This document shows, one piece after another, positions 17,795 through 36,880 of a stretch of 53,166 bases of DNA (its first letter is position 1; each line of letters begins with the position of its first letter). The notes under the pieces are model-generated. The model had not been told where the DNA came from. It saw only the letters and a list, made by a program, of their open reading frames with translations, and searched no databases. The DNA is from Candidatus Parvarchaeota archaeon. Its GTDB lineage: Archaea; Nanobdellota; Nanobdellia; JAFCGN01. Position numbers and translations under genes: made by a program. Location: assembly GCA_017608045.1 (NCBI GenBank), contig JAFCGN010000007.1, positions 1 through 53,166 on the forward strand. The letters are read 5' to 3'.

Positions 17795-18154
17795 ATGAGA
17801 TTATACAGGGTTAAAAACGAGGAATTAATGAGTCATGCAATTGATTGGCAGAATGAAATTTTTAATTTAGTGTCTCTTTTAAGGGAAGTTGATGAAAATG
17901 ACAAACAAGTGAATTCTTTTTTAATAAACTTATTGGATGGTTTTAATGCCTTTCTTTATTGGAAATGGCCAAACAAGCATTCAGAGGAGGAATTAAAAAT
18001 TATTGAAGAAAAAGGAAATTTTGTAAAAGAGTATTTTCAAAAAAAAGCAAAAGAAAGCGAATTGCCTGGGAATTCAAAATACTATAAGAAGATGGCGAGC
18101 ATAACAAAAGAAACCATAAATTATATTTTGAATTCTCAATATAAATTGCAGTAA
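17795..18154 (+). CDS. Small soluble helical protein, unknown
   Basis: The 119-residue product is charged and predicted all-helical, with no membrane segment (MRLYRVKNEELMSHAIDWQNEIFNL...). No domain is recognised. Its stop codon TAA (18152-18154) shares its last base with the 3' end of the antisense tRNA-Thr gene, so the two transcription units collide. Confidence 0.6.
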   Translation: MRLYRVKNEELMSHAIDWQNEIFNLVSLLREVDENDKQVNSFLINLLDGFNAFLYWKWPNKHSEEELKIIEEKGNFVKEYFQKKAKESELPGNSKYYKKMASITKETINYILNSQYKLQ

Positions 18155-18237
18155 GCCCTTGGTGAGATTCGAACTCACGACCCCTGCCTTTCTTGTAGGA
18201 TTACGAGGGCAGTGCTCTACCACTGAGCTACAAGGGC
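18154..18237 (-). tRNA. tRNA-Thr (CGT) with a 12-nt intron
   Basis: The minus strand folds into a complete cloverleaf. Acceptor GCCCTTG/CAAGGGC has T73. The D arm is GCTC..GAGC, the anticodon stem CTGCC/GGCAG, and the T arm GTGAG-TTCGAAT-CTCAC. The 19 nt between the anticodon-stem strands must hold a 7-nt loop plus a 12-nt intron. With the canonical site after position 37 the loop is CTCGTA|A, giving anticodon CGT (18205-18203), which reads ACG Thr. The intron (18201-18190) can pair GTA/TAC with the anticodon side, a minimal bulge-helix-bulge-like structure. CCA is not encoded. Confidence 0.88.
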
Positions 18238-21284: not shown

Positions 21285-21812
21285 ATGTCTGTGAGAGTAT
21301 ATGAAGGAATAACTTTAGTAATTATTCCTGTTGAACAATATTTTAAAAAAAATATTTCTTTAATAAGTAATTTTTCAAAAAAAGGTTATGAAATTATTTA
21401 TGTAACTTCTAACAAGCCTTTTAAAATATTGAATGAAGTTTTTAAGAAAAAAAAGATAGAGAACGTGTTTGTTATAGATATGATAACTAAAACAGCTGTT
21501 AATGCTCCTAAAAAAGAAAAAAATGTTTTATTTACAAATTCTCCAACATCTTTAACAGAAGTTTCAATAAGCATTAACCAATTGCTTAATAAGTTGAAAA
21601 ACAAAAAAAGAATGTTATTCTTTGATTCTTTGACTGCATTAAGAATTTATAATGATGAATCTCGCGTTGAAAAATTCACGCATTTTTTAACAAATAAGCT
21701 GCGCTTTGCAGAAGTAAAAGCAATTTTTATTAGTGTGGAAGAGGAAACTGACAAACTTTTAATACAAAAACTTTCTTTATTAGTTGATAATGTGGTGAAA
21801 TTAAATGATTAA
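21285..21812 (+). CDS. KaiC-like protein lacking a P-loop (signalling island, copy 1)
   Basis: The 175-residue protein follows the KaiC/RecA strand order. An initial strand (TLVIIPVEQYF) stands where Walker A would be, then IIYVTSNKP, VFVIDMITK, and a Walker B-like MLFFDSLTALRIYNDE. It ends with KAIFISVEEE and VDNVVKLND. No GxxGxGKT is present, so it should not hydrolyse ATP in the usual way. It is clearly related to the protein at 26203-26736: both share SPxxLTE, FDSL[TS]xLxIYxD and a following R..F. The gene opens the island, and its stop overlaps the next start. Confidence 0.65.
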   Translation: MSVRVYEGITLVIIPVEQYFKKNISLISNFSKKGYEIIYVTSNKPFKILNEVFKKKKIENVFVIDMITKTAVNAPKKEKNVLFTNSPTSLTEVSISINQLLNKLKNKKRMLFFDSLTALRIYNDESRVEKFTHFLTNKLRFAEVKAIFISVEEETDKLLIQKLSLLVDNVVKLND

Positions 21813-22587
21813 TATGCTTTTCATTTTGCAATTAATTGATTTTTTGGTTGTAGGAGGATTAATAATTAATTTTTTTCTTATGATGTTAGCATATTTTGGG
21901 TTTGAAAAAGGAGAAACAAAAAATCTTATGAAAAGCAATATTTCTTTACAATTCTTTGTTTCATTGCTTATTATTTCTTTAGTTATTTCTCAAGTAAGAA
22001 GTGGGTATGCTGGTTTGGAAGATATTAACTATTATATTCAAAGAGTTTTATTCTTGATTGTGCTTATTGTAGAAAGCAGGTTTGTTCTTAAATTGAATGT
22101 TTTTTCAGCAAATTTTGGATTTAAAACAAGTTATGAAGGCATCTTATCATTATTTAATTTAAAACCTGAAAAAGAGATTACAAACAGTCAAAGAAGAGAA
22201 CATTTATCATTTTTAATCCTTGTTTCAGTAATGTTTTTTGCAACAATTTTTTTAATAAAAAGTTATCTTCCTCAAAACGACCTTGAAGTTTTTTCTGACG
22301 GCATAATAGGTCTTTTATACATTATTGCTTTTGGATTTAATTTTATTGCCTTTAAATTCACTAATAATAAGAAGGTATTTTGTATTTCAGCAAGTTTTTT
22401 CGGACTTGCTATAATTCGTCTTTTTGAAATTGGTTTTCAAGGATTAGATTATATTGCGCCTGCAAGCACTCATTATTTTGCAAAAATGCTTATTGAATTG
22501 TTTAGGATGTTATTTATTATTTTCCTCTTATATTTTATGTTTGGATTAATAAAAAATAACAAAAAAACAGGTGATGTTCTTGATTAA
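21805..22587 (+). CDS. Multi-pass membrane protein of the signalling island
   Basis: The 260-residue protein has about seven to eight hydrophobic helices (LQLIDFLVVGGLIINFFLMMLAYFGF near the start, LFRMLFIIFLLYFMFGLI at the end) and a short cytosolic loop around LKPEKEITNSQRRE. ATG 21805 overlaps the preceding gene by 8 nt, and its own 3' end overlaps the next by 14-17 nt, so translation is coupled. No family is recognised. It resembles the membrane sensor part of a histidine kinase separated from its kinase, and may be the signal input (inference). Confidence 0.7.
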   Translation: MINMLFILQLIDFLVVGGLIINFFLMMLAYFGFEKGETKNLMKSNISLQFFVSLLIISLVISQVRSGYAGLEDINYYIQRVLFLIVLIVESRFVLKLNVFSANFGFKTSYEGILSLFNLKPEKEITNSQRREHLSFLILVSVMFFATIFLIKSYLPQNDLEVFSDGIIGLLYIIAFGFNFIAFKFTNNKKVFCISASFFGLAIIRLFEIGFQGLDYIAPASTHYFAKMLIELFRMLFIIFLLYFMFGLIKNNKKTGDVLD

Positions 22588-22846
22588 TGTATATGCAATT
22601 TTGTCTATTGTAATTAATTTTATTTTATCAATTATATTTGGTTTTTCTTGTCTTATTTTGTTGGAAAATTTTAGGAAAAAAAATTACTCTTATTTAATAA
22701 TTGGTTTAGCCATTTTTAGTATTGTTTATTTGTTGAAAGGTGTTTTTAGTTTTTTAGTATTGTTTAATACTCCTTATTGGATTTTTGTTAATCTTCTTGA
22801 ATCCTTGGGCATGATTTTTGTTATATTGTCAATAATTGCTTATTGA
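22574..22846 (+). CDS. Small three-helix membrane protein of the signalling island
   Basis: The 90-residue protein is three hydrophobic helices with almost no loops (INVYAILSIVINFILSIIFGFSCLILLENF, YLIIGLAIFSIVYLLKGVFSFLVLF, WIFVNLLESLGMIFVILSIIAY). It overlaps the upstream membrane-protein gene and precedes the histidine kinase by 57 bp. GTG 22571 is an alternative start. Possibly a second membrane subunit of the sensor; no family is recognised. Confidence 0.65.
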   Translation: MFLINVYAILSIVINFILSIIFGFSCLILLENFRKKNYSYLIIGLAIFSIVYLLKGVFSFLVLFNTPYWIFVNLLESLGMIFVILSIIAY

Positions 22847-22903
22847 GAATGTTCAAATTTTAATGAATAATTTAAAATAGTTAGTTTTTGTATATTCATA
22901 TAT

Positions 22904-25333
22904 ATGAAAAATGATAATAAGGAACTTTTTTCTAAAAAAGATTTTAATAACTTAATAAGATTGTTTGGAAAAGCCATAATAAAACTTGATTTAAAAACTG
23001 GTAAGTATGATTTCGTTTTAGGGAATATAGAGAAGTATGGATATTCAAAAGAGAATTTTCAGAAAAAATTTTTTATTAAGGACATAATGCATCCAGAAGA
23101 TGTTAAAAACATACTGTTGAGAGACATAAAATTAATGAATGAAGGTAAAACACCTCCATTGAGGGAAAATTTTAGAATAAAAAACCCAAAAGGAGGGTAT
23201 TATTTTGTTGAACAAAGAAATCATTGGATAAAAGATAAGGAAGGAAATTTTACACACTTAATGGCTGTTTTAGAGGATAAAACTAAAGAAAAAACGCTTG
23301 AAGAAAAGTTAAAAAAAAATGAGGAACTTTATGAAACACTTGTTGAAAGGGCTAATGATGGAATCTTATTAATACATAATAAAAAAATAATTTTTGTAAA
23401 TAAAAAGATTACAAAAATGTTTGGTTATTCAAAAAACGAGATTTTAAATACTGATTTTACAAAATATGTAAGCAAAAAAGAGATTCCTAAATTGCTTAAA
23501 CTTTATGTTAATCGTTTTCTCGGAAAAAAAGTGCCGACAATTTATGAAACAATTCTGATTAATAAAAATGGAGAAGAAGTTATTGTGGAAGTGAATGGTG
23601 GTTTAGTGGATTATGAGGGTAAAAAATGTGATTTAGTGTTTATTAGGGATATAACTGAGAGAAAAAAGACAGCTGAAAAAATAATTGAAAGTGAAGAAAA
23701 ATTCAGAACTTTGTTTGATAACCTGAATGATGGTGTAGTAATTTATGATTATGTTGAGAATCAAAATGATTTTGTTTTTGTTGACTTAAATAAAGCAGTA
23801 GAGAAAATGGAGGGTGTAAGAAGAAAACATGTAATTGGGAAAAGAGTTACAAAAGTTTTTCCTATTGTAAAAAAAACAGGTTTATTTGATGTTTTTCAAA
23901 GGGTTTTTAAAACAGGAACACCAGAATTCAAAACAATTGTTTTTCGTGATAAAAAAAATAAAATTTATGCTTATAGAAAAAATTATGTTTTTAAACTTCC
24001 TGATAATCATTTAGTAGTAATTTATAAAGATTTAACAAAAGAAAAAGTAGCTGAACAAAAAATAATTGAAAGTGAAGAAAAATTCAGAACACTTTTTGAA
24101 ACAGCAAACATTGGTATTTCTTTGATGAAAAAAGAGGTTTTTACTGATTGTAATCAAAAATTTCTCGAATTATTTGGGCTTAATTCAAAAAAACAAATAA
24201 TTGGTAAAACAATATATGATTTTTTTCCGCAAAAACAAACACATGGAAAGGATTCAAAAACAAAAGCAAAACAATTATTTAATAAAACATTAAAAGGGCA
24301 AGCGCAATTCCTTGAATGGAAATTTAAAAAACTTAATAACACTGTGTTTGATGCAGAAGTAACATTGTCAAGATTAATAATTAAAAACGAGCCATATATT
24401 CTTATTTTTGTCAAAGACATTACAGAAAGAAAAAAAATAGAGCAAAAATTGGTGATTGCACAAAAGAAATTGAAAGAATACTCCTTAAATCTTGAAAAGA
24501 AAGTTAAGGAAAGAACAAAAGAGTTGAAGAAAACAATAAAGGCACTTAAACTAAAAGAAAAAAGATTAATTAATTCAAAAAAAGCTTTAATAAATCTTAC
24601 AGGAGAACTTAATAGTGCTTTAAAAGAATTGAAAAAATTAGATGAGATGAAAACGCGTTTTTTAAGCACAATAAGCCATGAATTAAGAACACCCATGACT
24701 CCTATGAAAGCACAATTGCAAATGCTTTTAAAAAAATATTTTGGAGAGTTGAATGATGAACAAGAAGAAAGTCTTAGAATTGTGCTTAATAATACTGAAA
24801 GACTTGATTCCCTTATAGCTGATTTACTTGATGTTTCAAGAATACAAGCAAAAGCACTTAAACTCTTTCTTAAAAAAAATAGTTTAAATGAGGTGATAAA
24901 AGAAACTCTTAAATTGCTTGAACCAAAAATAAAGAAAAAAGGTCTTGACATAAGCATAAGATTAACACCGCTTCCTAAATTTTATTTTGACAAGAACAGG
25001 ATAACGCAGGTGATGATTAATTTATTAGATAATGCAGTTAAATTTACTCCAAAAGGAAAAATAAGCGTGTTTTCCAAAAAATCTAGAAAAAAAGCAATCG
25101 TGGTTATAAAAGACACGGGAGTTGGAATTTCAAAAGAAATTCAATCAAAATTGTTTCACCCATTTATTCAAGAGGATACTTCTAAAACAAGAAATTTTGG
25201 AGGTACAGGTCTTGGATTAAGCATTTGTAAAGGAATAATAGATGCACATAATGGGAGAATATGGTTTGAAAGTAAGAAAAACAAAGGAAGCACGTTTTAT
25301 TTTGAGTTGCCAATTAAAGAAAGTTTGAAATAG
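22904..25333 (+). CDS. Soluble sensor histidine kinase with four PAS domains
   Basis: The 809-residue protein has no membrane segment. Four PAS domains lie at about 12-130, 140-250, 265-380 and 390-505, the last three followed by DITERKK-type or DLTKEK-type PAC ends. A long coiled coil (~510-585) leads to HisKA with the H-box SHELRTP (His592 phosphorylated). The HATPase has N-box QVMINLLDNAVKFTP, G1 DTGVGIS and G2 GGTGLGLSI. It should phosphorylate the two receivers encoded just downstream. PAS3 and PAS4 linkers are nearly identical in DNA, showing recent internal duplication. No output domain is attached. Confidence 0.93.
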   Translation: MKNDNKELFSKKDFNNLIRLFGKAIIKLDLKTGKYDFVLGNIEKYGYSKENFQKKFFIKDIMHPEDVKNILLRDIKLMNEGKTPPLRENFRIKNPKGGYYFVEQRNHWIKDKEGNFTHLMAVLEDKTKEKTLEEKLKKNEELYETLVERANDGILLIHNKKIIFVNKKITKMFGYSKNEILNTDFTKYVSKKEIPKLLKLYVNRFLGKKVPTIYETILINKNGEEVIVEVNGGLVDYEGKKCDLVFIRDITERKKTAEKIIESEEKFRTLFDNLNDGVVIYDYVENQNDFVFVDLNKAVEKMEGVRRKHVIGKRVTKVFPIVKKTGLFDVFQRVFKTGTPEFKTIVFRDKKNKIYAYRKNYVFKLPDNHLVVIYKDLTKEKVAEQKIIESEEKFRTLFETANIGISLMKKEVFTDCNQKFLELFGLNSKKQIIGKTIYDFFPQKQTHGKDSKTKAKQLFNKTLKGQAQFLEWKFKKLNNTVFDAEVTLSRLIIKNEPYILIFVKDITERKKIEQKLVIAQKKLKEYSLNLEKKVKERTKELKKTIKALKLKEKRLINSKKALINLTGELNSALKELKKLDEMKTRFLSTISHELRTPMTPMKAQLQMLLKKYFGELNDEQEESLRIVLNNTERLDSLIADLLDVSRIQAKALKLFLKKNSLNEVIKETLKLLEPKIKKKGLDISIRLTPLPKFYFDKNRITQVMINLLDNAVKFTPKGKISVFSKKSRKKAIVVIKDTGVGISKEIQSKLFHPFIQEDTSKTRNFGGTGLGLSICKGIIDAHNGRIWFESKKNKGSTFYFELPIKESLK

Positions 25334-25392
25334 TAATATTGCGTTCTAATATATAGTTTTGTGTATTCATTAAAAAAGGAGTTTTAATGAAT

Positions 25393-25398
25393 GGAGGT
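25393..25398 (+). promoter_or_regulatory. Strong ribosome binding site GGAGGT
   Basis: GGAGGT lies 5 nt before ATG 25404 of the first receiver gene. It is among the best matches to the 16S rRNA 3' end in the window, suggesting strong translation of this receiver. Confidence 0.6.
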
Positions 25399-25403
25399 AT
25401 TTA

Positions 25404-25769
25404 ATGAAAAAGAAGATTCTTGTTATAGATGATGACAAAGATACATTAGAAACCATAAAAAAAATCTTGGTAAAAAATAACTATGAAGTTAAGATTCTTG
25501 AAGAACCAAAAAAATGCATAGAATTTATAAAAAAAACAAGACCAGATCTTGTGCTCTTAGATATTTTAATGCCTGAAATTTTAGGCACGGATTTGTCTGA
25601 GATAATAAAAACAGAATTTTGTAATTTACCTGTTGTTTTTTTGACAATAGTTCCAAAAGAAGAAATTGATGTTAAAAGAGTAGATGGTTATATAAGAAAA
25701 CCCTTTTACATAAAAGATCTTTTGAAACTTGTGAAAAAAGTGCTTAACAAAAAATCAGCAAACAGATAA
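25404..25769 (+). CDS. Stand-alone response-regulator receiver 1
   Basis: The 121-residue protein is a single receiver domain: acidic D9-D10, phospho-acceptor D53 (LLDILMPE), Thr81 and Lys99 (YIRKPF). There is no DNA-binding or enzymatic output. It follows the kinase by 70 bp and has a GGAGGT site. As a single-domain receiver it must act by binding another protein; the KaiC-like proteins of this island are obvious candidates (inference). Confidence 0.92.
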   Translation: MKKKILVIDDDKDTLETIKKILVKNNYEVKILEEPKKCIEFIKKTRPDLVLLDILMPEILGTDLSEIIKTEFCNLPVVFLTIVPKEEIDVKRVDGYIRKPFYIKDLLKLVKKVLNKKSANR

Positions 25770-25816
25770 CAAAATATTAATTTAATCATGGATTATTAAA
25801 AAAAAGAGGTGTGTTA

Positions 25817-26188
25817 ATGAAAAAAAAGATAATTATTGTTGATGATGAAAGAGATATAAGAAGAACTGTGAAACAAATTCTTGAAAAAGAAAATTATGAA
25901 ATTTTTACAGCAGTGAATGGTGAAGACCTTTTTAAAAAACTTGAAAGAATAACTCCAGATTTGATTCTTCTTGATATAATGATGCCTGGAATGACCACTT
26001 CTCAGATAATAGAAAAATTAAGAGACAATAAAAAAACGAGAAATATTCGGATTATTTATTTAACTGTTGTGCAAGTAAGTGAAATGGAAAAAATAAAAAT
26101 ATTGAAATCAAAAAATATTGAGGATTACATTCAAAAACCGTTTGATATTAATGATTTAAAGAAAAGAATTAGAAAAGCACTAAGATAA
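25817..26188 (+). CDS. Stand-alone response-regulator receiver 2
   Basis: This second single receiver is 123 aa from ATG 25817; GTG 25811 is an alternative. The GAGGTG motif at 25806-25811 overlaps that GTG and favours the ATG. Conserved residues are D9-D10, D53 (LLDIMMPG), Thr83 and Lys107 (YIQKPF). It is 14 bp upstream of the second P-loop-less KaiC-like gene, so those two are probably co-translated. The two receivers are distinct in sequence, not recent duplicates. Confidence 0.92.
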   Translation: MKKKIIIVDDERDIRRTVKQILEKENYEIFTAVNGEDLFKKLERITPDLILLDIMMPGMTTSQIIEKLRDNKKTRNIRIIYLTVVQVSEMEKIKILKSKNIEDYIQKPFDINDLKKRIRKALR

Positions 26189-26202
26189 GAGAGGCGAATT
26201 AA

Positions 26203-26736
26203 TTGGAAAATTTAGGAGAAGTATTAGAAGTTAATGATGTAATTTTAGTAAAAATAAAATCCGATGTTTATACAAAAAATATAAAAGAAATAGCAAAAAT
26301 ATTGAGCAGTAAAAATAAATTATTGTTCATAACATTGAATAAGAGTTCTGATTCTTTAATTTCTTCTTTTAAAAAATACAAAATAAATGTTGGTAATATT
26401 TATTTTTTAGATGCTATAACAAGAACATTTACTAAACCAAGAAGAATAAAGAATTCTACTTTTGTGAGATCACCGCAAGCATTGACAGAAATTGGGATTG
26501 AATTTACAAAAATTATCAAAAAATTTAAACCAGATTGCATAGTCTTTGACTCTTTAAGCACTTTAATAATTTATGAAGATGATATAAGAACTGGTTTGAA
26601 CAGGTTTATTACATCAATAATTAATAAAGCATTAAGAAATAATTTGAAAATAATTTTTTTCTGCTTAAAAAGCGATGAAAACAGCAGATTAATTAAGAAC
26701 ATAAGCATTGTTGCTGAAAAAATAATTAATATTTAA
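26203..26736 (+). CDS. KaiC-like protein lacking a P-loop (signalling island, copy 2)
   Basis: TTG 26203 is the only in-frame start at the right distance from the AGAGGCG motif just upstream. The 177-residue protein has the same strand order as the 21285 protein: DVILVKIKSDVY in the Walker A position without GKT, LLFITLNKS, IYFLDAITR, SPQALTEIGI, and the Walker B-like CIVFDSLSTLIIYEDDIRT. It ends KIIFFCLKSDE...AEKIINI. Its stop touches the stop of the convergent KaiC-like ATPase. Likely a protein-binding, non-hydrolysing RecA fold. Confidence 0.65.
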   Translation: MENLGEVLEVNDVILVKIKSDVYTKNIKEIAKILSSKNKLLFITLNKSSDSLISSFKKYKINVGNIYFLDAITRTFTKPRRIKNSTFVRSPQALTEIGIEFTKIIKKFKPDCIVFDSLSTLIIYEDDIRTGLNRFITSIINKALRNNLKIIFFCLKSDENSRLIKNISIVAEKIINI

Positions 26737-27600
26737 TTAAACTTCTGTAAAGACTTCTTCTTCTGAATAAATTGTTATTCCACCTTTTTCAATATGGAAA
26801 GGCATTATTCTTTCTGTATGTGTTGTTCCCCTCATTTTTAAAATAGCGAGCATTCTTTCATACACATTTCCTGTTTTTACGTGGTATAATAAAATAACTC
26901 CATCTGCTGCGTATTCTTCAAGACTGAAAGTATTTTCACTTTCTAAATTAAAATCACTTGTAATGATGCTTGTAATTTTTAATCTTTTAAGCAGGTTTGC
27001 CATATCAATTAATGCTTTTCTAACTTCTATTTTTGTCTCAAAAAATAAACTTATTAAAGACCCTGGGTCAATGACAATTCGTTTGGCATTAATTAATTCA
27101 ATGGAATCCGTAATATTTTGCATTAAGGCGTCCATCTTATACAATGTATTCTTTACAATAAGAAGTTTTTTATTTTTGATTAATGGTTTAACTTTAAAAC
27201 CCATTTTTTCATAGTTCTCAATTATTCTTTCAGGTTCTTCTTCGAGAGAGATAAAAACACCGGGTTCCCCAAATTTTTTTGCACCCTCATACAAATATTG
27301 AAAGCCTAATGTAGTTTTTCCGCTGCCAGGACCGCCTGCAACAATAACAAAATTCCCTTTTGGGATTCCGCCATTCAAGGATTCATCAAGACCTGAAATC
27401 CCTGTTTTGCTTCTGATGTCTTTTTGGTTTGTTGTTTTTATTTTTTTAATAGCTTTAATATGTTTATCATATTGTTTTTTCTTTTTTGGAATTTTAGAAA
27501 TATTTTTTCGTAATTCCCCAATTTTTTTTTCAAAAACAACTTTTTCAGGCACAATATTTTTTCGTAATTCCTTAATTTTTTTATTAAATGACTTATTCAT
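26737..27600 (-). CDS. KaiC-like RecA-fold ATPase, single domain
   Basis: The 287-residue protein has a KaiC core: KTGISGLDESLNGGIPKGNFVIVAGGPGSGKTT with Walker A at 89-96. Catalytic glutamates lie in SLEEEPE (~119-125), Walker B RIVIDP is at 174-179, and the C-terminal ILKMRGTTHTERIMPFHIEKGGITI is typical. The 60-residue N-terminus is basic and holds an 18-codon duplication (KKIKELRKNI / KKIGELRKNI). Archaeal single-domain KaiC-like ATPases, such as ArlH, act with filament motors. It is convergent with the signalling island and followed by the pilin operon. Confidence 0.88.
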   Translation of the reverse strand: MNKSFNKKIKELRKNIVPEKVVFEKKIGELRKNISKIPKKKKQYDKHIKAIKKIKTTNQKDIRSKTGISGLDESLNGGIPKGNFVIVAGGPGSGKTTLGFQYLYEGAKKFGEPGVFISLEEEPERIIENYEKMGFKVKPLIKNKKLLIVKNTLYKMDALMQNITDSIELINAKRIVIDPGSLISLFFETKIEVRKALIDMANLLKRLKITSIITSDFNLESENTFSLEEYAADGVILLYHVKTGNVYERMLAILKMRGTTHTERIMPFHIEKGGITIYSEEEVFTEV

Positions 27601-27700
27601 TATTTTATATAAAATAACAAATGATTATAAAGGTTTTTTCATAAACCCTTTAATGCTTTAATACCAAATACTTAATAATTTGCGGTTCATACTTATTCTT

Positions 27701-29917
27701 ATGCATAAAGCACAAGCTGCACTTGAATACTTAATGTTAATAAGCTTCATTATCTTGATTATAGTGCCATTAGCGTATTATGCAAAATCAAAAACTATTG
27801 AAACATCTACATTAAAAGAAACAGAAACTGCATTAAATAAAATAAAAACAACTATTGACACTGTTTATGCAATGGGTTATCCAGCAAGAAAAAGCATTTT
27901 GATTTACTTACCTGAAAATATTGCAAATAGCAGTATAATCAATAATACAATTATATACTATATGGCTTCAGGAACTTCTGTTTGGGAAAGCATAAGCACT
28001 TGTATTGAAGGAGAAGGGCTTCCTACAAAACAAGGATATCATTTTTTAAATATTAATGCAAGGCCAAATGGTTGTGTAATGTTAAAACAAAAAAGCCTTT
28101 ACTACGTTCCTGATGAAATAAGCACGTACGTTCCGCACGATTTTTCAAAAACATTTTATTTGAACATTACTAATTTATTAAGCACAAGCGTAAATCTTAA
28201 TTTGACTTCTTATGGAAGCATGAATTCGTATATTGATTTGGATTTATCAACTCCTGGAAGGCAGACTTATTATGATTTAGGGTCTTTCAATGCTGGAGAG
28301 ACAAAAAATATCTTAATAGAATTGTTTGGTGATTCAATAGGTTCTTATAGTGGAAACATAACCATACAAGGTTTAAGTGAGGAAGCAGTTTTAGTGGATT
28401 TCACAACAACTATTGGTGTTTTGGATTTAGAGCCTGAATACCAAAAAGTTGATGTTGCTTATGGAGCTTATAAAGATGTTAGTTTAACAATAAATAACAG
28501 TGGTTTAACTGATTTATTGTTTGTAAATTTAAGTGTTGATACTGGTTTTGAAGATTTTGTTGATTTAATTCCTGGTGGTTCCAAAGATGCTTTTAGGGAT
28601 ATTGGGAATCTTAGTAGTGGAGAGCATTATTTTACAATAAGGGTTTTTGGAAATCAAACAGGGAATATTACAGGAAAAATAATTGCAAAAGCATATGATA
28701 ATTCTGATGATAACATTACAATTGAACTGAATTCCACAACAGATACAATACCTCCTGAAATAGTTTTTGTAAGCCCTACGCCAAATAATAATCAAGTAAT
28801 AACAGATGCTTTTGTTTATGTAAATATAACTGGAAATGAAGAATTAAATTCAGCACAGCTTGAATGGCAAGGAGTTAATGAGAGCATGACTTGTTCAAGC
28901 AATAATTGTTATATTAATAAAACAGGTTTAACAAAAGGAGATTATACTTATAGGGTGTGGGCAGAGGATTTAAGCAATAATGGTAATTGGACAGAAACGA
29001 TGGTTGTTAAAATATGCAAACCTCCAAGAAGATACGTTGTTACTCTTGGAAATGAAAATATTAATGAAGGCTTGAGTGTAAGCGGGGATTACAATAGCAC
29101 TAATAATAATGATGGTGTTTACAGGATTGTAAATGAAACATCAACACAAGTAATTCAAACATTTTTTTATGATGATTTTGAAAGCAATAGTTTAATTAAT
29201 TGGACTGAAACAGGAGGAGGTGATTGGAGAACAAGTTCAGCAAATCCAGCAAATGGGACGTATTCAGCAATAGCAGACAATAGTGATCCTCCGCAAGGCT
29301 CTCAAATGTACACAACACAATATGTTGATTTAACAACAAAGAATTGTGATAATGTTTTGTTAAGTTATTATTGGTGGATTGATAGGGGTCTTGATAGTGG
29401 CGAATATTTAGCACTTGATTTGTATGATGGTTCTTGGCATTATGATGTTTTAAGATTAAATGGGAATGTTGATGCTGAAAACACATGGCATGGTGTTGAT
29501 TATAATGTAAGTGAAAATCTTAATACAAATACAAATTCTTTTAGAATACAATATGATACATTAGAAAATTTGGCTAACGAAGACGTTTATGTTGATACAA
29601 TATCCTTAATAAGTGATTGCCAAAGCATTCCATTAAATATTACTTATTTAATAAATGATATTGATACTACTTATGATTATTATAATTTAAGTGTGAAAGC
29701 AAGCAGTTCTAATGAAAACTTTACAGTAGATGCTGATGGTGTAACCATTGATTATGTGGATTCAAGTGTAGATGAATTGGTTATTTACAATGCAACAAGC
29801 ATAGCAAAAGACGGACAAGTTTTGATTACTTTTTATGACACAGATAAGTTTAATGACACGAGTATTGATTCACTTAATATAGATTTCTTGGAGGTTTATG
29901 CATGGGATGTGGAGTAA
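27701..29917 (+). CDS. Large pilin-like adhesin with class III signal peptide
   Basis: ATG 27701 (738 aa) is preferred over the upstream in-frame start at 27680. It gives the short basic leader MHKAQAALEYLMLISFIIL, matching archaeal class III signal peptides cut by a prepilin peptidase before the hydrophobic helix. The ectodomain is rich in Asn and Thr with many sequons. It has two CARDB-like repeats (~150-345), an Ig-like segment starting TIPPEIVFVSPTPN, and a jelly-roll-like segment (FFYDDFESNSLINWTE..., about 480-640). It leads a five-gene overlapping operon. Probably a tip adhesin of a type IV-like pilus. Confidence 0.8.
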   Translation: MHKAQAALEYLMLISFIILIIVPLAYYAKSKTIETSTLKETETALNKIKTTIDTVYAMGYPARKSILIYLPENIANSSIINNTIIYYMASGTSVWESISTCIEGEGLPTKQGYHFLNINARPNGCVMLKQKSLYYVPDEISTYVPHDFSKTFYLNITNLLSTSVNLNLTSYGSMNSYIDLDLSTPGRQTYYDLGSFNAGETKNILIELFGDSIGSYSGNITIQGLSEEAVLVDFTTTIGVLDLEPEYQKVDVAYGAYKDVSLTINNSGLTDLLFVNLSVDTGFEDFVDLIPGGSKDAFRDIGNLSSGEHYFTIRVFGNQTGNITGKIIAKAYDNSDDNITIELNSTTDTIPPEIVFVSPTPNNNQVITDAFVYVNITGNEELNSAQLEWQGVNESMTCSSNNCYINKTGLTKGDYTYRVWAEDLSNNGNWTETMVVKICKPPRRYVVTLGNENINEGLSVSGDYNSTNNNDGVYRIVNETSTQVIQTFFYDDFESNSLINWTETGGGDWRTSSANPANGTYSAIADNSDPPQGSQMYTTQYVDLTTKNCDNVLLSYYWWIDRGLDSGEYLALDLYDGSWHYDVLRLNGNVDAENTWHGVDYNVSENLNTNTNSFRIQYDTLENLANEDVYVDTISLISDCQSIPLNITYLINDIDTTYDYYNLSVKASSSNENFTVDADGVTIDYVDSSVDELVIYNATSIAKDGQVLITFYDTDKFNDTSIDSLNIDFLEVYAWDVE
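29890..29895 (+). promoter_or_regulatory. Ribosome binding site GGAGGT inside the adhesin gene
   Basis: GGAGGT lies within the end of the adhesin gene, 6 nt before ATG 29902 of the overlapping pilin-like gene, and fixes that start. Confidence 0.6.
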
Positions 29918-30327
29918 AAGCACAAATAAGTGTTGAAGCAATATTTGTTATTAGTTTTTTGTTGCTTGTTTTCGGTTTTTTAATGGTTGATTACAATTTC
30001 AGGTTAAAAGTGTTAAATAATGAGGAAATAATTGTTTCAGAGGAGAATCTTTGCAAAGGATTAGCACAAAGGATAGCAAATGTGTTATTGAGTAATAACA
30101 CTAAAACAACAATTATTTTGCCAAAAAAAATAAATGGTGTTAATTATGCAATAAATATTAATGGTTCTGAAAAAGTAATAATTCTTAGTGATGATAAAAA
30201 CAATAATATTTTTTGTGGAATAATTACAACAGAAGTTTATGATTCAACAAATAATAATGGGTTTCTTATTCCAAAAACTACTATTAATTTAATAAATATT
30301 GATTCAAAGGTGGTTTTTTTATGGTAA
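29902..30327 (+). CDS. Pilin-like protein with class III signal peptide
   Basis: The 141-residue protein starts MGCGVKAQISVEAIFVISFLLL, a class III signal peptide (KAQISVE, then a helix). A ~110-residue beta-rich domain with sequons follows. It overlaps the adhesin gene by 16 nt and the next gene by 7 nt. Likely a minor pilin or a subunit of the same filament. Confidence 0.78.
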   Translation: MGCGVKAQISVEAIFVISFLLLVFGFLMVDYNFRLKVLNNEEIIVSEENLCKGLAQRIANVLLSNNTKTTIILPKKINGVNYAININGSEKVIILSDDKNNNIFCGIITTEVYDSTNNNGFLIPKTTINLINIDSKVVFLW

Positions 30328-30827
30328 AAAAGGCACAAATATTTTCTGCAGATTTAACTATATCTTTTGTGATTTTTCTTGCGTTTATGCTTATAGGGAT
30401 TAATAAATGGAATGCAAAGCTGAATGAGTTGGATGAATTAAGAAACACTGAAAAACTATGGTTTGAAGGAGGAATACTGATGGAAACCTTATTTACTCAA
30501 GGCAATCCAGAAAATTGGACTTTAAATGCAATAAAAACAATTGGTTTAACAAACAAACCAAACTATCTTGATAAACACAAGTTAGAATTATTCATAAATT
30601 ATTCAAAAACAAATTATGATACAATAAAAAAAGAAATTGGCATTAATGAATATGAATATAATCTTAAAGTAGCATATCTTAATGGAACACTTATTTATGA
30701 CCAAGAGAACAATTTTAATCAAGGCAGTGAAGTTATTAGATTAACAAGAACCGCATTTCTTGACAAACATGAATTTAAGCCAAATTATGAAGAAGTTATT
30801 GTTGAGTTAATAGTTTGGAGGGTATAA
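30321..30827 (+). CDS. Pilin-like minor subunit
   Basis: The 168-residue protein begins MVKKAQIFSADLTISFVIFLAFMLIG, a short basic leader and hydrophobic helix like class III signal peptides. The rest is a soluble domain ending in VELIVWRV. The terminal ...WR is shared with the next gene product (LRLWRKNNE). It overlaps the upstream pilin gene by 7 nt and is followed 3 bp later by the next member. Confidence 0.72.
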   Translation: MVKKAQIFSADLTISFVIFLAFMLIGINKWNAKLNELDELRNTEKLWFEGGILMETLFTQGNPENWTLNAIKTIGLTNKPNYLDKHKLELFINYSKTNYDTIKKEIGINEYEYNLKVAYLNGTLIYDQENNFNQGSEVIRLTRTAFLDKHEFKPNYEEVIVELIVWRV

Positions 30828-30830
30828 CAG

Positions 30831-31250
30831 ATGCTAAATAAAAGAGGGGTTGTTTTATCAATAGATATAGTTCTTGCATCACTACTTTTAGTTTATTTTT
30901 TAACAAGTTTTTCTAAAATTTCTCATAATTTTGATTTTAATAGAAAAGTAATAAATGATGAGGCAAGAAATATTGTTGTTGTTTTAGAAGATGAGCTTAA
31001 AACCATGAATCTCACATTAATCAATGATACCATAAATGAATTAAAAAAAGAAGATTATGATTATTCTTTGAACATAACTTATTATGACAAGAATTTAAAT
31101 ACAATAAGTTCTACAACACTTGGAACTTCATTTAATGACCTTTCAAATGATTTTAGCGTATATAATAGTAAAGGAGTAATAATTGATAGAGGTAATATAA
31201 CAACGTATTATTTTGTTCAGCTAAGATTGTGGAGGAAAAACAATGAATAG
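30831..31250 (+). CDS. Pilin-like minor subunit
   Basis: The 139-residue protein opens MLNKRGVVLSIDIVLASLLLVYFLTSF, a short basic leader with one hydrophobic helix, then a ~110-residue ectodomain with sequons (NLTL, NITY). It has the same size and layout as its upstream neighbour and overlaps the next gene by 8 nt. The family is not recognised beyond pilin-like architecture. Confidence 0.68.
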   Translation: MLNKRGVVLSIDIVLASLLLVYFLTSFSKISHNFDFNRKVINDEARNIVVVLEDELKTMNLTLINDTINELKKEDYDYSLNITYYDKNLNTISSTTLGTSFNDLSNDFSVYNSKGVIIDRGNITTYYFVQLRLWRKNNE

Positions 31251-32061
31251 AAATGCTGTTATTTATACAATATATCTTTATTTTTTATTTTCCTTAATTG
31301 CTTCTTTAGTAACATTGGTTTTTATTAAATCAACAAACTTTTGGGACATGATGAACGACAATTCTTTTGCAGAAAACCTTGTTAATGAAAAAAACAATAT
31401 TTATTCTCTTTTAGAGGATAGTCTTAATTCAATAACGCATATTCAAACTGATAATCAGAATGTTAATATAACAATTCAATCGAGTTTAAATCCTAATATT
31501 AACATAAGTGAAAACTTGATGCAAACTGAAAAATTTATTAATATGTATAAGGACTTTTATGGAGCAAACATAAATATAAATTTTTCATTGTTAAAAAATG
31601 AGTTAAATAATGTTACAAGGATTATTGAACCTCAAAAGGTTTTTATTATACATGATTATGATAACAAAATAATTTATTTGAACAATACTTCTCAATTAAA
31701 AGGCACATATATTTTCATAGACCATAATGTAACAACATTTTCAACGCAGTGGATACCCACGCCATCTGGAGATTATCCTGTTGTTATAAAAACACCAGAT
31801 TCTGAAACAAGTGTTAATTTAACAAGGACTTCTTCTTATGTTTATACAATTAGGTTGAGGCAAGGTTTTGTTTCTGAGAGGATACGTATTTTTTTTAATT
31901 TAGATGTTGGTGAAATTCTTGTTGATTACTCAGATCTTAGTGTTATAACAAATGTGACAATTTATTTCAAGAATGAATTAAGTGCGGGCCAAACACTTAT
32001 TGATTTTAATCAAAAAAATATTGTTAATCTTAGTTTAGGAAATTATGAGACAAGCATTTAA
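31243..32061 (+). CDS. Surface protein, last gene of the pilin operon
   Basis: The 272-residue protein has one N-terminal helix (AVIYTIYLYFLFSLIASLVTLVFI) and a ~240-residue ectodomain with many N-x-S/T sequons (NVTR, NVTTF, NLTR, NVTIYF). The ATG overlaps the previous gene. Its stop overlaps the 3' end of the convergent broken GTPase gene. Probably a membrane-anchored component of the same surface structure. Confidence 0.7.
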   Translation: MNRNAVIYTIYLYFLFSLIASLVTLVFIKSTNFWDMMNDNSFAENLVNEKNNIYSLLEDSLNSITHIQTDNQNVNITIQSSLNPNINISENLMQTEKFINMYKDFYGANININFSLLKNELNNVTRIIEPQKVFIIHDYDNKIIYLNNTSQLKGTYIFIDHNVTTFSTQWIPTPSGDYPVVIKTPDSETSVNLTRTSSYVYTIRLRQGFVSERIRIFFNLDVGEILVDYSDLSVITNVTIYFKNELSAGQTLIDFNQKNIVNLSLGNYETSI

Positions 32062-32794: not shown

Positions 32795-33517
32795 ATGGTT
32801 ATGAGTAGGGCAAAAAAGATTTTTAGTTCAAAAAAAAAGCATTCAAGAAAAAAACTGAAAACAAAAAAGAAACAAAACAATAATGTAAAAGCATTGCAGG
32901 AAAAAATAAAAAAGACGTTTAAAAAAATTGATAATAAAGAAATAAAGCCTTCAAATGCGCAAAAAGTTTTGTTGAAACTTGCTTTAGAAACTCAGAACTT
33001 GATTAATAAAGATTCAAAAAAGACAAATATTCTTACAAAAGCGTGGACAGATTCTTTGGATGAGACTTTTAAGAATTATTCAGAAAATGAAAAACTTGAA
33101 TGGTTGTTAAGTCCTGATTTTTGGAAGAAAATTTATGAAGTAGCACCTTTTTTGAAAATGGAAAAAAATCCAGAAAGAACAAAAAAAATAATGAAACAAG
33201 CAGTAAAAGAGTTTTCTAAAGTAAAAAAAAGAAAGCCTTTTAGTAAGAAATTAAAAGAATTTTTTGGATTAAAAAAAAGGAAACCAGATATAATTATCTG
33301 GACTCCTGGAAAATTTGATACAAAAATTGACCTTTTACTAAAAATTTTGGAAAAAAAGAAAAAATTAAGGCTTGGAAAATTAAGCGAGTTGCTTAAACAA
33401 GATTACGAACTTGTTGAAGAATGGGCAACAATACTTGATGAAAAAGGCGTAATTCAATTGAAGTATCCTCTCATAGGAGATGCTTATGTAGTGAAGAGGG
33501 ATAAAAAACATGGTTAA
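32795..33517 (+). CDS. Basic protein upstream of the secretion ATPase, unknown
   Basis: The 240-residue protein is strongly basic at the N-terminus (KKKHSRKKLKTKKKQ) and mostly helical. It ends in a winged-helix-like segment (KIDLLLKILEKKKKLRLGKLSELLKQDYELVEEWATILDEKGVIQLKYPLIGDAYVV). ATG 32801 is an alternative start. It overlaps the ATPase gene by 8 nt, so it is part of the secretion operon. A TATA-like TTTAAATATATT lies at ~32764-32775. Possibly a cytosolic adaptor or regulator of the motor (inference). Confidence 0.68.
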   Translation: MVMSRAKKIFSSKKKHSRKKLKTKKKQNNNVKALQEKIKKTFKKIDNKEIKPSNAQKVLLKLALETQNLINKDSKKTNILTKAWTDSLDETFKNYSENEKLEWLLSPDFWKKIYEVAPFLKMEKNPERTKKIMKQAVKEFSKVKKRKPFSKKLKEFFGLKKRKPDIIIWTPGKFDTKIDLLLKILEKKKKLRLGKLSELLKQDYELVEEWATILDEKGVIQLKYPLIGDAYVVKRDKKHG

Positions 33518-35018
33518 GGAAAAAATATTGAAAGAGTATAAATTTAAATCAAATGGGTTGCCTATAAAAGTAAGGATATTGATGAAAAAAGGAAACATTT
33601 CTCCAGTGTATGACATTAAGTTACCTGCATTAAAGTCTGGGACAAAAATTATGCTTAACCATGTTATAGAAGAAATAGTTGAAGAATTGAAATTGAATTC
33701 TAAAGAATTAACAAATCAAAAAGAAACTTCTAAAATTAAAGAATCAATAGAACAAGAAATAAAACGGAAATTAAGAATTTTGTTTCCTCAAGAAACCGAA
33801 GAAAAAATAAATTTTTTGACAGGTGCAATAATGCCAAAGACCATGGGTCTTGGACCTATTGAACATTTAATAAATGATAATCTTTTGGAAGAAATTGTTA
33901 TCCGAAGCAATAAACCTTTGTGGGTATATCATAGAGAGTTTGGTTGGTTAAGAACTAACATAATTATTTCAGAACAAAAGATTTATGATTATGCTGCATT
34001 AATTGCAAGACAGGTTGGAAGACAAATAAGCACTCTTGACCCTTTGCTTGACGCTCACATGTTAAATGGAGATAGAATAAATGCTGTGTTGAGTCCTGTA
34101 AGTTCTTTTGGCAATACAATAACAATTCGCAAGTTCAGGCGCACTCCTTGGACAATAACTGAATTAATAAGCAATAATACTATACCAATTAATCTTGCAG
34201 CACAATTATGGTTGTTAATTCAATATGAAATGAGTATAATTGTAAGTGGGGGGACTGCAAGTGGTAAAACAACAATGTTAAACACACTGCTTTCTTTTGC
34301 ACCGCCAAACCAAAGAATACTTAGCATAGAAGAAACAAGAGAGTTGCAATTACCAGAGTATTTGTTTTGGGATTCTTTGGTTGTAAAGGAGCCAAACCCT
34401 GAGGGAAAAGGAGAAGTGAGTATGCAAGACCTTTTAGTTAATTCTTTGCGTATGAGGCCTGACAGGATTGTTGTAGGCGAAGTAAGACGAAGCGAAGAAG
34501 CAAGAACTCTGTTTGAGGCATTGCATACAGGACATAGCGTTTATTCTACAATACACGCAGACACGAGCGAACAAACATTAAATAGATTAATGAGTGAGCC
34601 AATTAACATTCCTGAAAGCATGGTTTCAGGAGTGCCTATAATTTTGGTAATGATAAGGGATAGGAGAAAAGGTATAAGAAGGGTTTTTGAATTCAGTGAG
34701 GTTGTGCCAACAGCAATTGGTGGAAAAAGTGGTGTGAGATCAAATATATTGTGGCGTTGGAGACCAAGAAAAGACATTTTTAAGGAAGAAGGCATCAGTC
34801 AAAGAGTATACGATGATTTAAAATTACATACTGGTTTAAGTGATGAAGAAATAAAAAAGGATTTGCAAGAGAAAGAAGTAATTCTTGAATGGATGGTTCG
34901 CAATAAAATTTTTGATAATAGAAGGGTTGGAAACATTTTTAAGGAATATTATGAAAATAAAGAAGAATTATTGGTGCAAATTAAAAACAATTCTAAAAAG
35001 TTATTAAAGGGGTTTTAA
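33510..35018 (+). CDS. Type II/IV secretion-family ATPase (TadA/GspE/PilB-like)
   Basis: The 502-residue ATPase powers pilus assembly or secretion. An N-terminal domain (~1-200) precedes the motor core: Walker A GGTASGKT at 247-254, Asp/Glu box around ILSIEETRELQLPE, Walker B RIVVGEV at 319-325, and the His box GHSVYSTIHADTSEQTLNRL. It acts as a hexamer at the membrane with the platform proteins encoded directly downstream (1-nt overlap). Length and motifs are complete. It likely drives export of the pilins encoded at 27701-32061. Confidence 0.95.
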   Translation: MVKEKILKEYKFKSNGLPIKVRILMKKGNISPVYDIKLPALKSGTKIMLNHVIEEIVEELKLNSKELTNQKETSKIKESIEQEIKRKLRILFPQETEEKINFLTGAIMPKTMGLGPIEHLINDNLLEEIVIRSNKPLWVYHREFGWLRTNIIISEQKIYDYAALIARQVGRQISTLDPLLDAHMLNGDRINAVLSPVSSFGNTITIRKFRRTPWTITELISNNTIPINLAAQLWLLIQYEMSIIVSGGTASGKTTMLNTLLSFAPPNQRILSIEETRELQLPEYLFWDSLVVKEPNPEGKGEVSMQDLLVNSLRMRPDRIVVGEVRRSEEARTLFEALHTGHSVYSTIHADTSEQTLNRLMSEPINIPESMVSGVPIILVMIRDRRKGIRRVFEFSEVVPTAIGGKSGVRSNILWRWRPRKDIFKEEGISQRVYDDLKLHTGLSDEEIKKDLQEKEVILEWMVRNKIFDNRRVGNIFKEYYENKEELLVQIKNNSKKLLKGF

Positions 35019-35878
35019 TGAAAAAATTTTCAAGATTTTCAAAAAAGTTTAAAAGCATATCAAAGATAATTGTGAAATTTTATCCGAGTTTAAAAAATGA
35101 TTTGGAACTTATTCAAAACAACAAAACACCTGAAGAGTTTTTAAGCAGTAATTTGGTAATTTCATTAATTGTTAGCTTGTTCTTCTTTTTTTTCATTTCA
35201 GTTTATTTTTATTTACATGAAGGTGTTTTGTTTTTTGAAAAAATATTCTTGTTGTTATTTTATTCTATTGCAATTCAAATTTTTTTATTTTTTATTTTAA
35301 ACTTAAGACCAAGAATTGAATCTAATAAAAAAATGAAACTTTTTGAGAGGAATCTTCCAGTTTTCATAAGGCAATTATATGTGAGAGTTACTGCAGGGAT
35401 GTCTTTGTATGCAAGCATAGAGAACATAAGTGAAAAAGATTATGGAGGAGCAAGTTCATTAGCAAGAAGAATTGTTGCTCATGTTAGAGGTGGTTTGAAT
35501 GAAGTTGAGGCATTGGAAGCTGTTTCTAAAGAAATACCATTAGAGAAATTGAATAAACTTTTTTGGCAGATAATTAATTCAGTTAAGTCCGGGGCAAATA
35601 TATCTGAGACACTTAATTCAATGGTTATTGATTTAGAAAAAGAACAAGGGATAATGATTGAAGAATTTGGTTCTAAACTAACTCCACTAACAATGATGTA
35701 TTTATTGTTAACTATTATCTTTCCTTCTTTAGGAACTGCATTTGTTATAATTATTTCTTCATTATTTGGTACAATAATGAATGAAAAAATTTTGTGGATG
35801 TTTCCTATTTATATCATAATTATTAATTTCATATTTTTTAATTTAGTAAAAAGGATTAAGCCAAATGTTGAAATGTGA
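35018..35878 (+). CDS. Type II secretion F-domain platform protein (TadB/TadC-like), first copy
   Basis: The 286-residue integral membrane protein has a T2SF domain with the conserved LPVFIRQLYVRVTAGMSLYASIENIS segment. Two N-terminal helices (LVISLIVSLFFFFFISVYFYL and a second) and two C-terminal helices flank it. Its ATG overlaps the ATPase stop (TAATG). Platform proteins anchor the motor ATPase and convert its movement to filament growth. The next gene is a second platform subunit, as in Tad systems. Confidence 0.9.
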   Translation: MKKFSRFSKKFKSISKIIVKFYPSLKNDLELIQNNKTPEEFLSSNLVISLIVSLFFFFFISVYFYLHEGVLFFEKIFLLLFYSIAIQIFLFFILNLRPRIESNKKMKLFERNLPVFIRQLYVRVTAGMSLYASIENISEKDYGGASSLARRIVAHVRGGLNEVEALEAVSKEIPLEKLNKLFWQIINSVKSGANISETLNSMVIDLEKEQGIMIEEFGSKLTPLTMMYLLLTIIFPSLGTAFVIIISSLFGTIMNEKILWMFPIYIIIINFIFFNLVKRIKPNVEM

Positions 35879-35884
35879 TTAAAA

Positions 35885-36880
35885 GTGAAAAATAGAATTT
35901 ACAAAAAAGTAACAGCTTTAATGCCTAAAAGATATGTTAATAAAGTAAAAGAAAGACTTTATTTTGCAGGAATAAAAGTAAAAACAGAAGAGTGGATAGG
36001 TTTTTTGACACTATTTCCAACAACATTAGGTTTGCTTTCAATATTTTTGCTTTATTTTTTTTACGGTGTTAGGAATCCTCTTTCTTTTATAGGAAGTTTC
36101 GTGTTAATAACCTTAATAGTCTTCTTTACAATAAATGCTATTTTGGTTTTAATTAAAGACAGGCGCGCTATTTTTGTAAATAAAATACTGCCTGATGTGT
36201 TAATGCTCATATCAAGTAATCTTCGTTCTGGCATGACAGTTGAACAAGCAATACTTAATGCGAGCAGGCCGGAGTTTAAATCATTTGCAATTGAATTAGG
36301 AAATGCAAGCAAAAAAACTTTAATGGGAGAAAATTTTGTTAAAGCATCAGAAAGTATTACAAAGCATATTGATAGCAAGGATTTAAAATATGTTGTTGAG
36401 TTAATAAACGAGGGCCAAAAAAGTGGGGGTAACTTGGCAAATTTATTAAGTACAGTAAGTTATGATTTAAGAGCTAAACAAAGACTTTTGCAAAAAACAA
36501 ACGCAAGCACTATAACTTATGTTATCATGTTTTTTATTGCAACAATTTTAGGCGCTCCTTTATTGTTTTCCCTAAGCACTTTTTTGGTTAGCACAATGGA
36601 GGGTTTAATAACTGTGAATGTTCCTTTAAGTTTTGAATCCCAAGTTAGTAGAACATTAAGGATTAAAGCCCCAATAATAACTGAAAATTATTTAAATTAT
36701 TTATCAATCAGCATGATTTTGCTTAATGCATTGTTTGTTTCATTCATGTTAGGATATATTCAAAAAGGAAGAGCAAATAATGGAATAAAATGGATTCCAA
36801 TATTAATGCCATTAAGCGTCTTTTTTTTCTTTTTATTTAAAAATATAATAAACAGTGTTTTTACAGGATTCTTCTTTTAA
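35885..36880 (+). CDS. Type II secretion F-domain platform protein, second copy
   Basis: The 331-residue protein has the same T2SF pattern (LPDVLMLISSNLRSGMTVEQAILNAS and GQKSGGNLANLLSTVSYDLR) with flanking membrane helices. GTG 35885 or ATG 35921 could start it; GTG keeps the full N-terminus and follows the first copy by 6 bp. Together they make the two-subunit platform expected with one ATPase. It is convergent with the UMP kinase gene. Confidence 0.9.
   Translation: MKNRIYKKVTALMPKRYVNKVKERLYFAGIKVKTEEWIGFLTLFPTTLGLLSIFLLYFFYGVRNPLSFIGSFVLITLIVFFTINAILVLIKDRRAIFVNKILPDVLMLISSNLRSGMTVEQAILNASRPEFKSFAIELGNASKKTLMGENFVKASESITKHIDSKDLKYVVELINEGQKSGGNLANLLSTVSYDLRAKQRLLQKTNASTITYVIMFFIATILGAPLLFSLSTFLVSTMEGLITVNVPLSFESQVSRTLRIKAPIITENYLNYLSISMILLNALFVSFMLGYIQKGRANNGIKWIPILMPLSVFFFFLFKNIINSVFTGFFF

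What the first reader, a model, noticed from the sequence alone, without database searches (positions are those of the whole stretch)
21285..27600. Signalling island pairing P-loop-less KaiC-like proteins with a split sensor, a four-PAS kinase and two lone receivers
Two paralogous RecA/KaiC-fold proteins without Walker A (21285-21812 and 26203-26736) bracket two multi-pass membrane proteins, a soluble PAS histidine kinase and two single-domain receivers. An ATP-binding KaiC-like protein lies convergent at 26737-27600. No DNA-binding output is encoded. The arrangement suggests receivers acting on a KaiC-type switch: the P-loop-less proteins could cap or inhibit the active ATPase. The adjacent pilin operon suggests the output is filament assembly. 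I know of no described system with this exact composition, but I cannot search.
Basis: partly seen in the sequence, partly recalled or inferred. Interest (0 to 1): 0.75.

Follow-up and report, generated by a model that had tools for sequence, protein, structure and literature searches.

The report
Two-component switch wired to pseudo-KaiC proteins
In a tiny archaeal genome, the only sensor kinase, the only two receiver proteins, the only clock-type KaiC ATPase and two 'dead' KaiC look-alikes sit together beside the pilus genes, a linkage that recurs in distant archaea and suggests that the sensor controls surface filaments through dead and live KaiC proteins.

Summary
21285-26736 is a tight seven-gene run: iKaiC1, two membrane proteins, a four-PAS histidine kinase, two lone receivers, iKaiC2. 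A single-domain KaiC ATPase converges on it, and a type IV pilus operon follows. Both 175/177-aa proteins are predicted with high confidence as RecA/KaiC folds. They lack Walker A, the catalytic glutamates and the C-terminal KMRG arm. They belong to the known 'inactivated KaiC' (iKaiC) group. No other histidine kinase, receiver, KaiC or iKaiC was found in the 92.5%-complete genome (RadA aside), so the receivers have no other visible output. In 280 genomes of the class, a kinase lies within 4 kb of an iKaiC in 18 (0.5 expected). A second iKaiC lineage, paired with a small membrane protein, is linked to pilus genes (14 of 30; p about 1e-10). A Thermoplasmata locus has the same composition. The island joins both modules; a same-genus genome keeps only kinase-receivers-iKaiC2/KaiC-pilin, so iKaiC1 and its membrane partners are an add-on and 'split sensor' is not supported. 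iKaiC proteins and KaiC-pilus links were already published, so this is a new variant of a known kind. Signalling order and pilus output are inferred.

The parts
21285..21812 (+). iKaiC1: 175-aa inactivated KaiC-fold protein (DUF7504), pilus/membrane-protein-linked lineage
   Evidence: Pfam DUF7504 40.9 bits; AlphaFold2 pLDDT 91.8 and PDB matches PH0284/KaiC; no Walker A, no catalytic Glu, no KMRG arm; tree position
21805..22587 (+). 260-aa multi-pass membrane protein; N-terminal half is probably the conserved iKaiC-partner 4-TM family, overlapping iKaiC1 by 8 bp
   Evidence: No Pfam hit; alignment to L038 partner protein, score 79 against 43 +/- 6.7 in class-preserving shuffles, 0 of 300; weak HMM score, 13.7 bits
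22571..22846 (+). 91-aa membrane protein, about 3 TM, role unknown
   Evidence: no homologue identified beyond weak BLAST matches
22904..25333 (+). Soluble histidine kinase, four PAS + HisKA + HATPase; the only HisKA protein found in the genome
25404..25769 (+). Stand-alone receiver 1 (REC1)
   Evidence: Pfam Response_reg 70.8 bits; conserved at the same place in G001
25811..26188 (+). Stand-alone receiver 2 (REC2), 14 bp upstream of iKaiC2
   Evidence: Pfam Response_reg 86.6 bits; only two receivers found in the genome
26203..26736 (+). iKaiC2: 177-aa inactivated KaiC-fold protein, TCS-linked lineage
   Evidence: AlphaFold2 pLDDT 92.7, PDB matches KaiC/PH0284/ArlH; clade whose members mostly neighbour HK or REC genes
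26737..27600 (-). Single-domain KaiC ATPase with Walker A; CI-like, without the Ser/Thr phosphosite pair of CII
   Evidence: Pfam KaiC 202 bits; alignment to CI and CII domains; the only KaiC found in the genome besides RadA
27680..32061 (+). Pilin-like operon (five genes; the first two carry class III signal peptides of KAQAALEYL/KAQISVEAI type)
   Evidence: sequence; first gene's relative sits beside KaiC in G001
33510..36880 (+). Type IV pilus motor: FlaI/TadA-type ATPase (33510-35018) and two TadC-like platform proteins (35018-35878, 35885-36880)
   Evidence: Pfam T2SSE 123 bits, T2SSF 56.8 and 42.6 bits

Best explanation
This is a complete, single-copy signalling system. The four-PAS kinase phosphorylates the two lone receivers. 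Phospho-receivers bind the inactivated KaiC proteins, first of all iKaiC2. The iKaiC proteins then dock on, or leave, the KaiC ATPase ring, where they act as non-catalytic subunits or adaptors. KaiC in turn sets the activity of the neighbouring type IV pilus motor, as the KaiC-like ArlH does for ArlI in the archaellum. iKaiC1 with its membrane partner probably ties the switch to the membrane at the pilus base. Shown: gene content, predicted fold, loss of catalytic motifs, absence of a second copy of each part in the genome, conserved linkage. Inferred: phosphotransfer pairs, receiver-iKaiC contact, iKaiC-KaiC contact, pilus output, sign of the effect.
For: (1) No second HisKA, receiver pair, KaiC or iKaiC set was found in the genome, so the receivers have no other candidate output. 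(2) HK genes are rare in the class (49 of 280 genomes), yet in 18 genomes one lies within 4 kb of an iKaiC against 0.48 expected (max 5 in 20,000 random placements); receivers peak at position -1 of iKaiC (10% against 0-4% at positions -3 to -9). (3) The same genus keeps HK-REC1-REC2-iKaiC2 with convergent KaiC and a pilin. (4) A Thermoplasmata locus has PAS-HK, REC, two iKaiC, KaiC, then pilin, TadC and FlaI. (5) iKaiC genes followed by a small membrane protein lie within 8 kb of FlaI in 14 of 30 cases, p about 1e-10. (6) REC-iKaiC fusions are published in Methanosarcinaceae, and REC-DUF835 elsewhere (PMC5847659), which supports physical contact. (7) The closest solved relative by sequence profile is ArlH (4YDS, E 0.004), which modulates ArlI (PMC8978795). 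(8) KaiC is CI-like with acidic residues where CII has the phosphosite, so input is more likely by partner binding than by autophosphorylation.
Against: No interaction or phosphotransfer was tested. Among 33 iKaiC with HK/REC within 3 kb only 6 also have pilus genes that near, so the pilus output of the TCS-linked type is less well supported than that of the other type. iKaiC1 and both membrane proteins are missing from the same-genus genome, so they are not essential to the core. In the window KaiC is convergent, not in the operon.
Confidence: 0.5

Rival explanations
1. The TCS-iKaiC-KaiC switch is real, but its output is not the pilus: KaiC acts on transcription, cell shape or another target, and pilus genes are merely next door.
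For: Only 6 of 33 TCS-linked iKaiC have pilus genes within 3 kb. Archaeal KaiC homologues have other roles, such as gas vesicles (PMC4858521) and CirA-linked control of motility and cell shape (PMC13286277).
Against: Pilin adjacency is kept in G001 and in the distant Thermoplasmata locus; the sister iKaiC lineage is strongly pilus-linked; the genome shows only one KaiC.
Confidence: 0.27
2. Two independent modules lie side by side: iKaiC1-membrane protein(s) belonging to the pilus, and HK-REC-REC-iKaiC2 with KaiC; they share no pathway.
For: The two iKaiC proteins fall in different clades; the same-genus genome has only the second module; each module occurs alone in many genomes.
Against: One tight run of seven genes; both would need a KaiC partner and only one was found; a distant locus also pairs two iKaiC behind one HK-REC.
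Confidence: 0.13
3. The P-loop-less proteins are not KaiC partners but general ligand- or protein-binding scaffolds; receivers signal through them to unknown targets and KaiC is incidental.
For: 79 of 172 iKaiC genes surveyed have no KaiC within 3 kb, counting contigs that end nearby; Methanosarcinaceae copies are isolated.
Against: KaiC is the commonest identified soluble neighbour (25% at -1, 17% at -2); in the window no other KaiC or receiver target was found.
Confidence: 0.1

Closest known systems
Inactivated KaiC (iKaiC) proteins and KaiC 'signal transduction hubs' in archaea (Makarova 2017, known here only from citations; Galperin 2018, PMC5847659)
   Same: KaiC-fold proteins with a dead ATPase, tied to receivers and kinases; DUF835, MEDS and iKaiC-REC fusions are described as response-regulator outputs
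   Different: Here iKaiC is a separate gene between lone receivers and a live KaiC, in DPANN archaea, in which that survey found almost no TCS, and next to pilus genes; the 2017 paper could not be read here
KaiC-family ATPases at archaeal type IV pilus loci (Makarova 2016, PMC4858521)
   Same: KaiC near TadC/VirB11-type pilus genes, proposed as regulators
   Different: That survey saw, in most cases, no second component; here iKaiC, a 4-TM partner and a full TCS are candidate second components
ArlH-ArlI of the archaellum motor
   Same: KaiC-fold regulator of a FlaI-type ATPase; ArlH is the nearest solved relative of the iKaiC profile
   Different: ArlH binds ATP and autophosphorylates (PMC8978795); iKaiC has no P-loop, and the live KaiC here is CI-like
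Cyanobacterial KaiABC clock
   Same: KaiC fold and CI-type ATPase
   Different: No KaiA or KaiB seen in the cluster; single KaiC domain; no CII phosphosites; input from a TCS

Membership tests
iKaiC (inactivated KaiC superfamily; DUF7504/DUF835/DUF7090) | RecA/KaiC fold and profile similarity to KaiC or these DUFs | tested here: met
   iK1 DUF7504 40.9 bits; iK2 KaiC and DUF7504 just below cut-off (E 1e-5 and 3e-4); 58 of 65 relatives match KaiC and DUF7504; fold matches
iKaiC (inactivated KaiC superfamily; DUF7504/DUF835/DUF7090) | Loss of Walker A and catalytic glutamate | tested here: met
   Alignment with live KaiC and 35-member alignment; Walker B Asp is kept
iKaiC (inactivated KaiC superfamily; DUF7504/DUF835/DUF7090) | No ATP hydrolysis | not testable with these tools
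   needs purified protein
Two-component system with CheY-like lone receivers | Kinase with HisKA/HATPase and receivers with phospho-acceptor Asp | tested here: met
Two-component system with CheY-like lone receivers | Phosphotransfer between these partners | not testable with these tools
   needs biochemistry
KaiABC circadian clock | Double-domain KaiC with CII Ser/Thr phosphosites | tested here: not met
   single domain, CI-like, acidic stretch at the site
KaiABC circadian clock | KaiA and KaiB present | not tested
   no such gene in the cluster; genome not searched for them
ArlH | ATP-binding KaiC-fold regulator of an archaellum operon | tested here: not met
   iKaiC proteins have no P-loop; the 287-aa KaiC scores 59 bits to the ArlH model against a cut-off of 215
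Type IV pilus system of archaea | Pilins, secretion ATPase and TadC platform in one locus | tested here: met

The most novel reading that the evidence does not exclude
A recurrent archaeal output route for lone receivers: kinase to receiver to pseudo-KaiC to KaiC ring to type IV pilus motor, with the pseudo-KaiC as regulatory subunit of a mixed KaiC ring and a dedicated 4-TM anchor. It would make up the whole two-component and KaiC apparatus of this genome.
Probability: 0.35. Interest if true: 0.78.

Novelty: new variant of a known kind. Interest (0 to 1): 0.55.

Why it matters
Many archaeal response regulators are lone receivers without a known output, and the main survey found no conserved neighbourhood for most of them (PMC5847659). 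Here a receiver output is narrowed to one candidate by counting: no second kinase, KaiC, iKaiC set or receiver pair was found in the genome. It also offers a 'second component' for pilus-linked KaiC, which an earlier survey missed in most cases (PMC4858521). It shows that this class of small-genome archaea, whose finished Nanoarchaeota genomes were once listed without two-component systems, does have them in about one genome in six, often tied to iKaiC. The whole chain is small enough to express and test in vitro.

Tried and rejected
Split sensor: rejected as stated; the membrane pair is absent from the same-genus genome, whose kinase has its own SBP_bac_3 sensor. Chance adjacency: rejected by neighbourhood statistics. 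KaiABC clock: rejected on domain number and phosphosites. Extra KaiC at G000:C2:25555: it is RadA (HhH plus RecA core, read by eye). Homology of the 260-aa protein to the 4-TM partner family by HMM alone is weak (13.7 bits, near background); only the pairwise shuffle test supports it. First genome scan with a broad alignment failed for lack of conserved stretches. The 2017 mBio paper is not held. No receiver-iKaiC fusion was found in the fetched loci. Complex prediction was not possible with the tools.
Full report
What is there. The window belongs to a 0.77-Mb archaeal genome in 20 contigs, 92.5% complete. Named relatives found with the iKaiC profile are mostly Woesearchaeota/Nanoarchaeota, so the class is Nanoarchaeia or equivalent (inference from the relatives). 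The finding's genes are all present: 21285-26736 holds seven genes on the plus strand with gaps of at most 70 bp and two overlaps, then KaiC on the minus strand at 26737-27600, then pilin-like genes 27680-32061, and a T2SSE ATPase and two T2SSF platform proteins at 33510-36880.

The P-loop-less proteins. iKaiC1 (175 aa) and iKaiC2 (177 aa) are paralogues (32% identity, E 3e-16). iKaiC1 passes Pfam's cut-off for DUF7504; iKaiC2 comes close to KaiC and DUF7504. Of 65 aligned relatives, 58 match KaiC and 58 match DUF7504, 20 match DUF835 and 16 DUF7090. AlphaFold2 gives pLDDT 91.8 and 92.7; the best solved structures for both are the RecA-superfamily ATPase PH0284 and KaiC (TM-score about 0.74-0.77 to PH0284 by query length), with ArlH in the list for iKaiC2. 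By sequence profile ArlH (4YDS) is the only PDB hit below E 0.01. Alignment with the live KaiC shows that the GGPGSGKTT loop is replaced by unrelated residues, the SLEEEPE catalytic stretch by TSNKP or TLNKS, the Walker B aspartate is kept, and the chain ends before the KMRG arm that reaches into the neighbouring subunit in KaiC rings (the role of that arm is from general knowledge). So these proteins should neither hydrolyse ATP nor complete a neighbour's site. This is what the literature calls iKaiC (PMC5847659).

Single-copy system. Searches of the whole genome find one HisKA protein, two receivers, one KaiC besides RadA, and two iKaiC, all inside this cluster. The same-genus genome likewise has one HisKA and two receivers, in the same order with iKaiC2, convergent KaiC and a pilin relative. 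The third genome of the order has one HisKA and one of its two receivers beside KaiC, two membrane genes and an iKaiC. About 7% of the genome may be missing, so 'only copy' is a strong but not absolute statement.

Conservation beyond close kin. In 280 genomes of the class 96 have an iKaiC hit and 49 a kinase. A kinase lies within 4 kb of an iKaiC in 18 genomes, against 0.48 expected when genes are placed at random (maximum 5 in 20,000 trials; positions were copied by hand). Genome-level co-occurrence is also enriched (odds ratio 3.9, p 2.5e-5; not corrected for phylogeny). Receivers sit directly upstream of iKaiC in 10% of cases against 0-4% at positions -3 to -9. On a tree of 152 iKaiC proteins the 'TCS nearby' label changes 11 times against 30 in shuffles, 'pilus nearby' 19 against 47, and 'membrane gene downstream' 14 against 50. 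iKaiC2 falls in a mostly TCS-linked clade, iKaiC1 in the large clade that is mostly pilus- and membrane-gene-linked (quick tree, several long branches).

Two modules. The common form in Woesearchaeota is KaiC (often two) next to iKaiC followed by a 4-TM protein of about 140 aa and then pilins, or TadC-TadC-FlaI in convergent order. Of 30 iKaiC plus membrane-protein pairs in the class, 14 have FlaI within 8 kb (about 1.4 expected, p about 1e-10). The 4-TM family has no Pfam match. The window's 260-aa protein overlaps iKaiC1 and aligns from its first residue with the partner protein of another genome of the order (score 79 against 43 +/- 6.7 in shuffles), though the family HMM gives it only 13.7 bits. 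It is therefore more likely a partner of iKaiC1 than a sensor for the kinase. The other form is HK and REC with iKaiC, at times with KaiC, for example L072, L073, L075, L096, L103 and L110. The window joins both forms. The same-genus genome lacks the first, so the junction is recent or was lost there.

Independent recurrence. In Thermoplasmata (L159) a PAS kinase, a receiver, two iKaiC, and a KaiC are followed by an archaeal pilin, a TadC-type and a FlaI-type gene. L165 and L138 are close relatives of L159 and count as the same lineage. The iKaiC pair there is not orthologous one-to-one to the window's pair, so the composition was probably assembled more than once.

How it probably works. Kinase to receivers is standard chemistry (motifs intact). 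Receiver to iKaiC is supported by adjacency and by published REC-iKaiC and REC-DUF835 fusions. iKaiC to KaiC is supported by shared fold and linkage: KaiC is the commonest identified soluble neighbour. KaiC to pilus motor rests on adjacency, on published links of KaiC with archaeal pili (PMC4858521) and on the ArlH-ArlI precedent (PMC8978795). The window's KaiC aligns best with CI, with a LEEYAADGV stretch where CII has the phosphosites, so it is more likely a ring ATPase read out by partner binding than an autokinase clock. The sign of the effect (capping, inhibition or activation) is open.

Limits. Neighbourhood classes come from simple ORF calling and HMMs built from the window's genes; transmembrane counts come from a hydropathy rule. 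Many contigs are short, so absence of a neighbour is weak evidence. The paper most likely to anticipate part of this (Makarova 2017) could not be read here. No complex prediction or experiment was possible.

Noticed in passing
L040-L063, L117-L191 (gene directly downstream of iKaiC): A family of about 140-aa, 4-TM proteins with a conserved GKEFGF-type tail follows iKaiC in about 78 loci and has no Pfam match in the members tested; it looks like a dedicated membrane partner of iKaiC at pilus loci.
   Followed up: partly
L037:3671-7607 (same-genus genome): The kinase counterpart has an SBP_bac_3 sensor and a TM segment, with the PAS domains on a separate 721-aa protein without kinase: the sensor part was swapped while the output (REC1, REC2, iKaiC2, KaiC) stayed.
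   Followed up: partly
L072 and L110: Receiver arrays around iKaiC: KaiC-REC-REC-REC-REC-iKaiC-HK in L072 (TadC genes upstream) and HK-REC-iKaiC-REC-iKaiC-REC in L110.
   Followed up: no
L078, L086, L091, L108, L113, L114: KaiC of about 320-900 aa near a 1,200-2,200-aa secreted or membrane protein that matches the window's 745-aa pilin-like protein, with an iKaiC nearby: a possible third type of iKaiC module.
   Followed up: no
window 18154-18237 (-): tRNA found by Rfam but missed by ARAGORN.
   Followed up: no
window 39669-41603 (-): A second VirB11/FlaI-like ATPase (644 aa) near the first pilus operon; the genome has at least five such ATPases.
   Followed up: no
L192-L194: Archaeoglobaceae carry KaiC, iKaiC, a 244-251-aa protein and a second KaiC in one run.
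   Followed up: no
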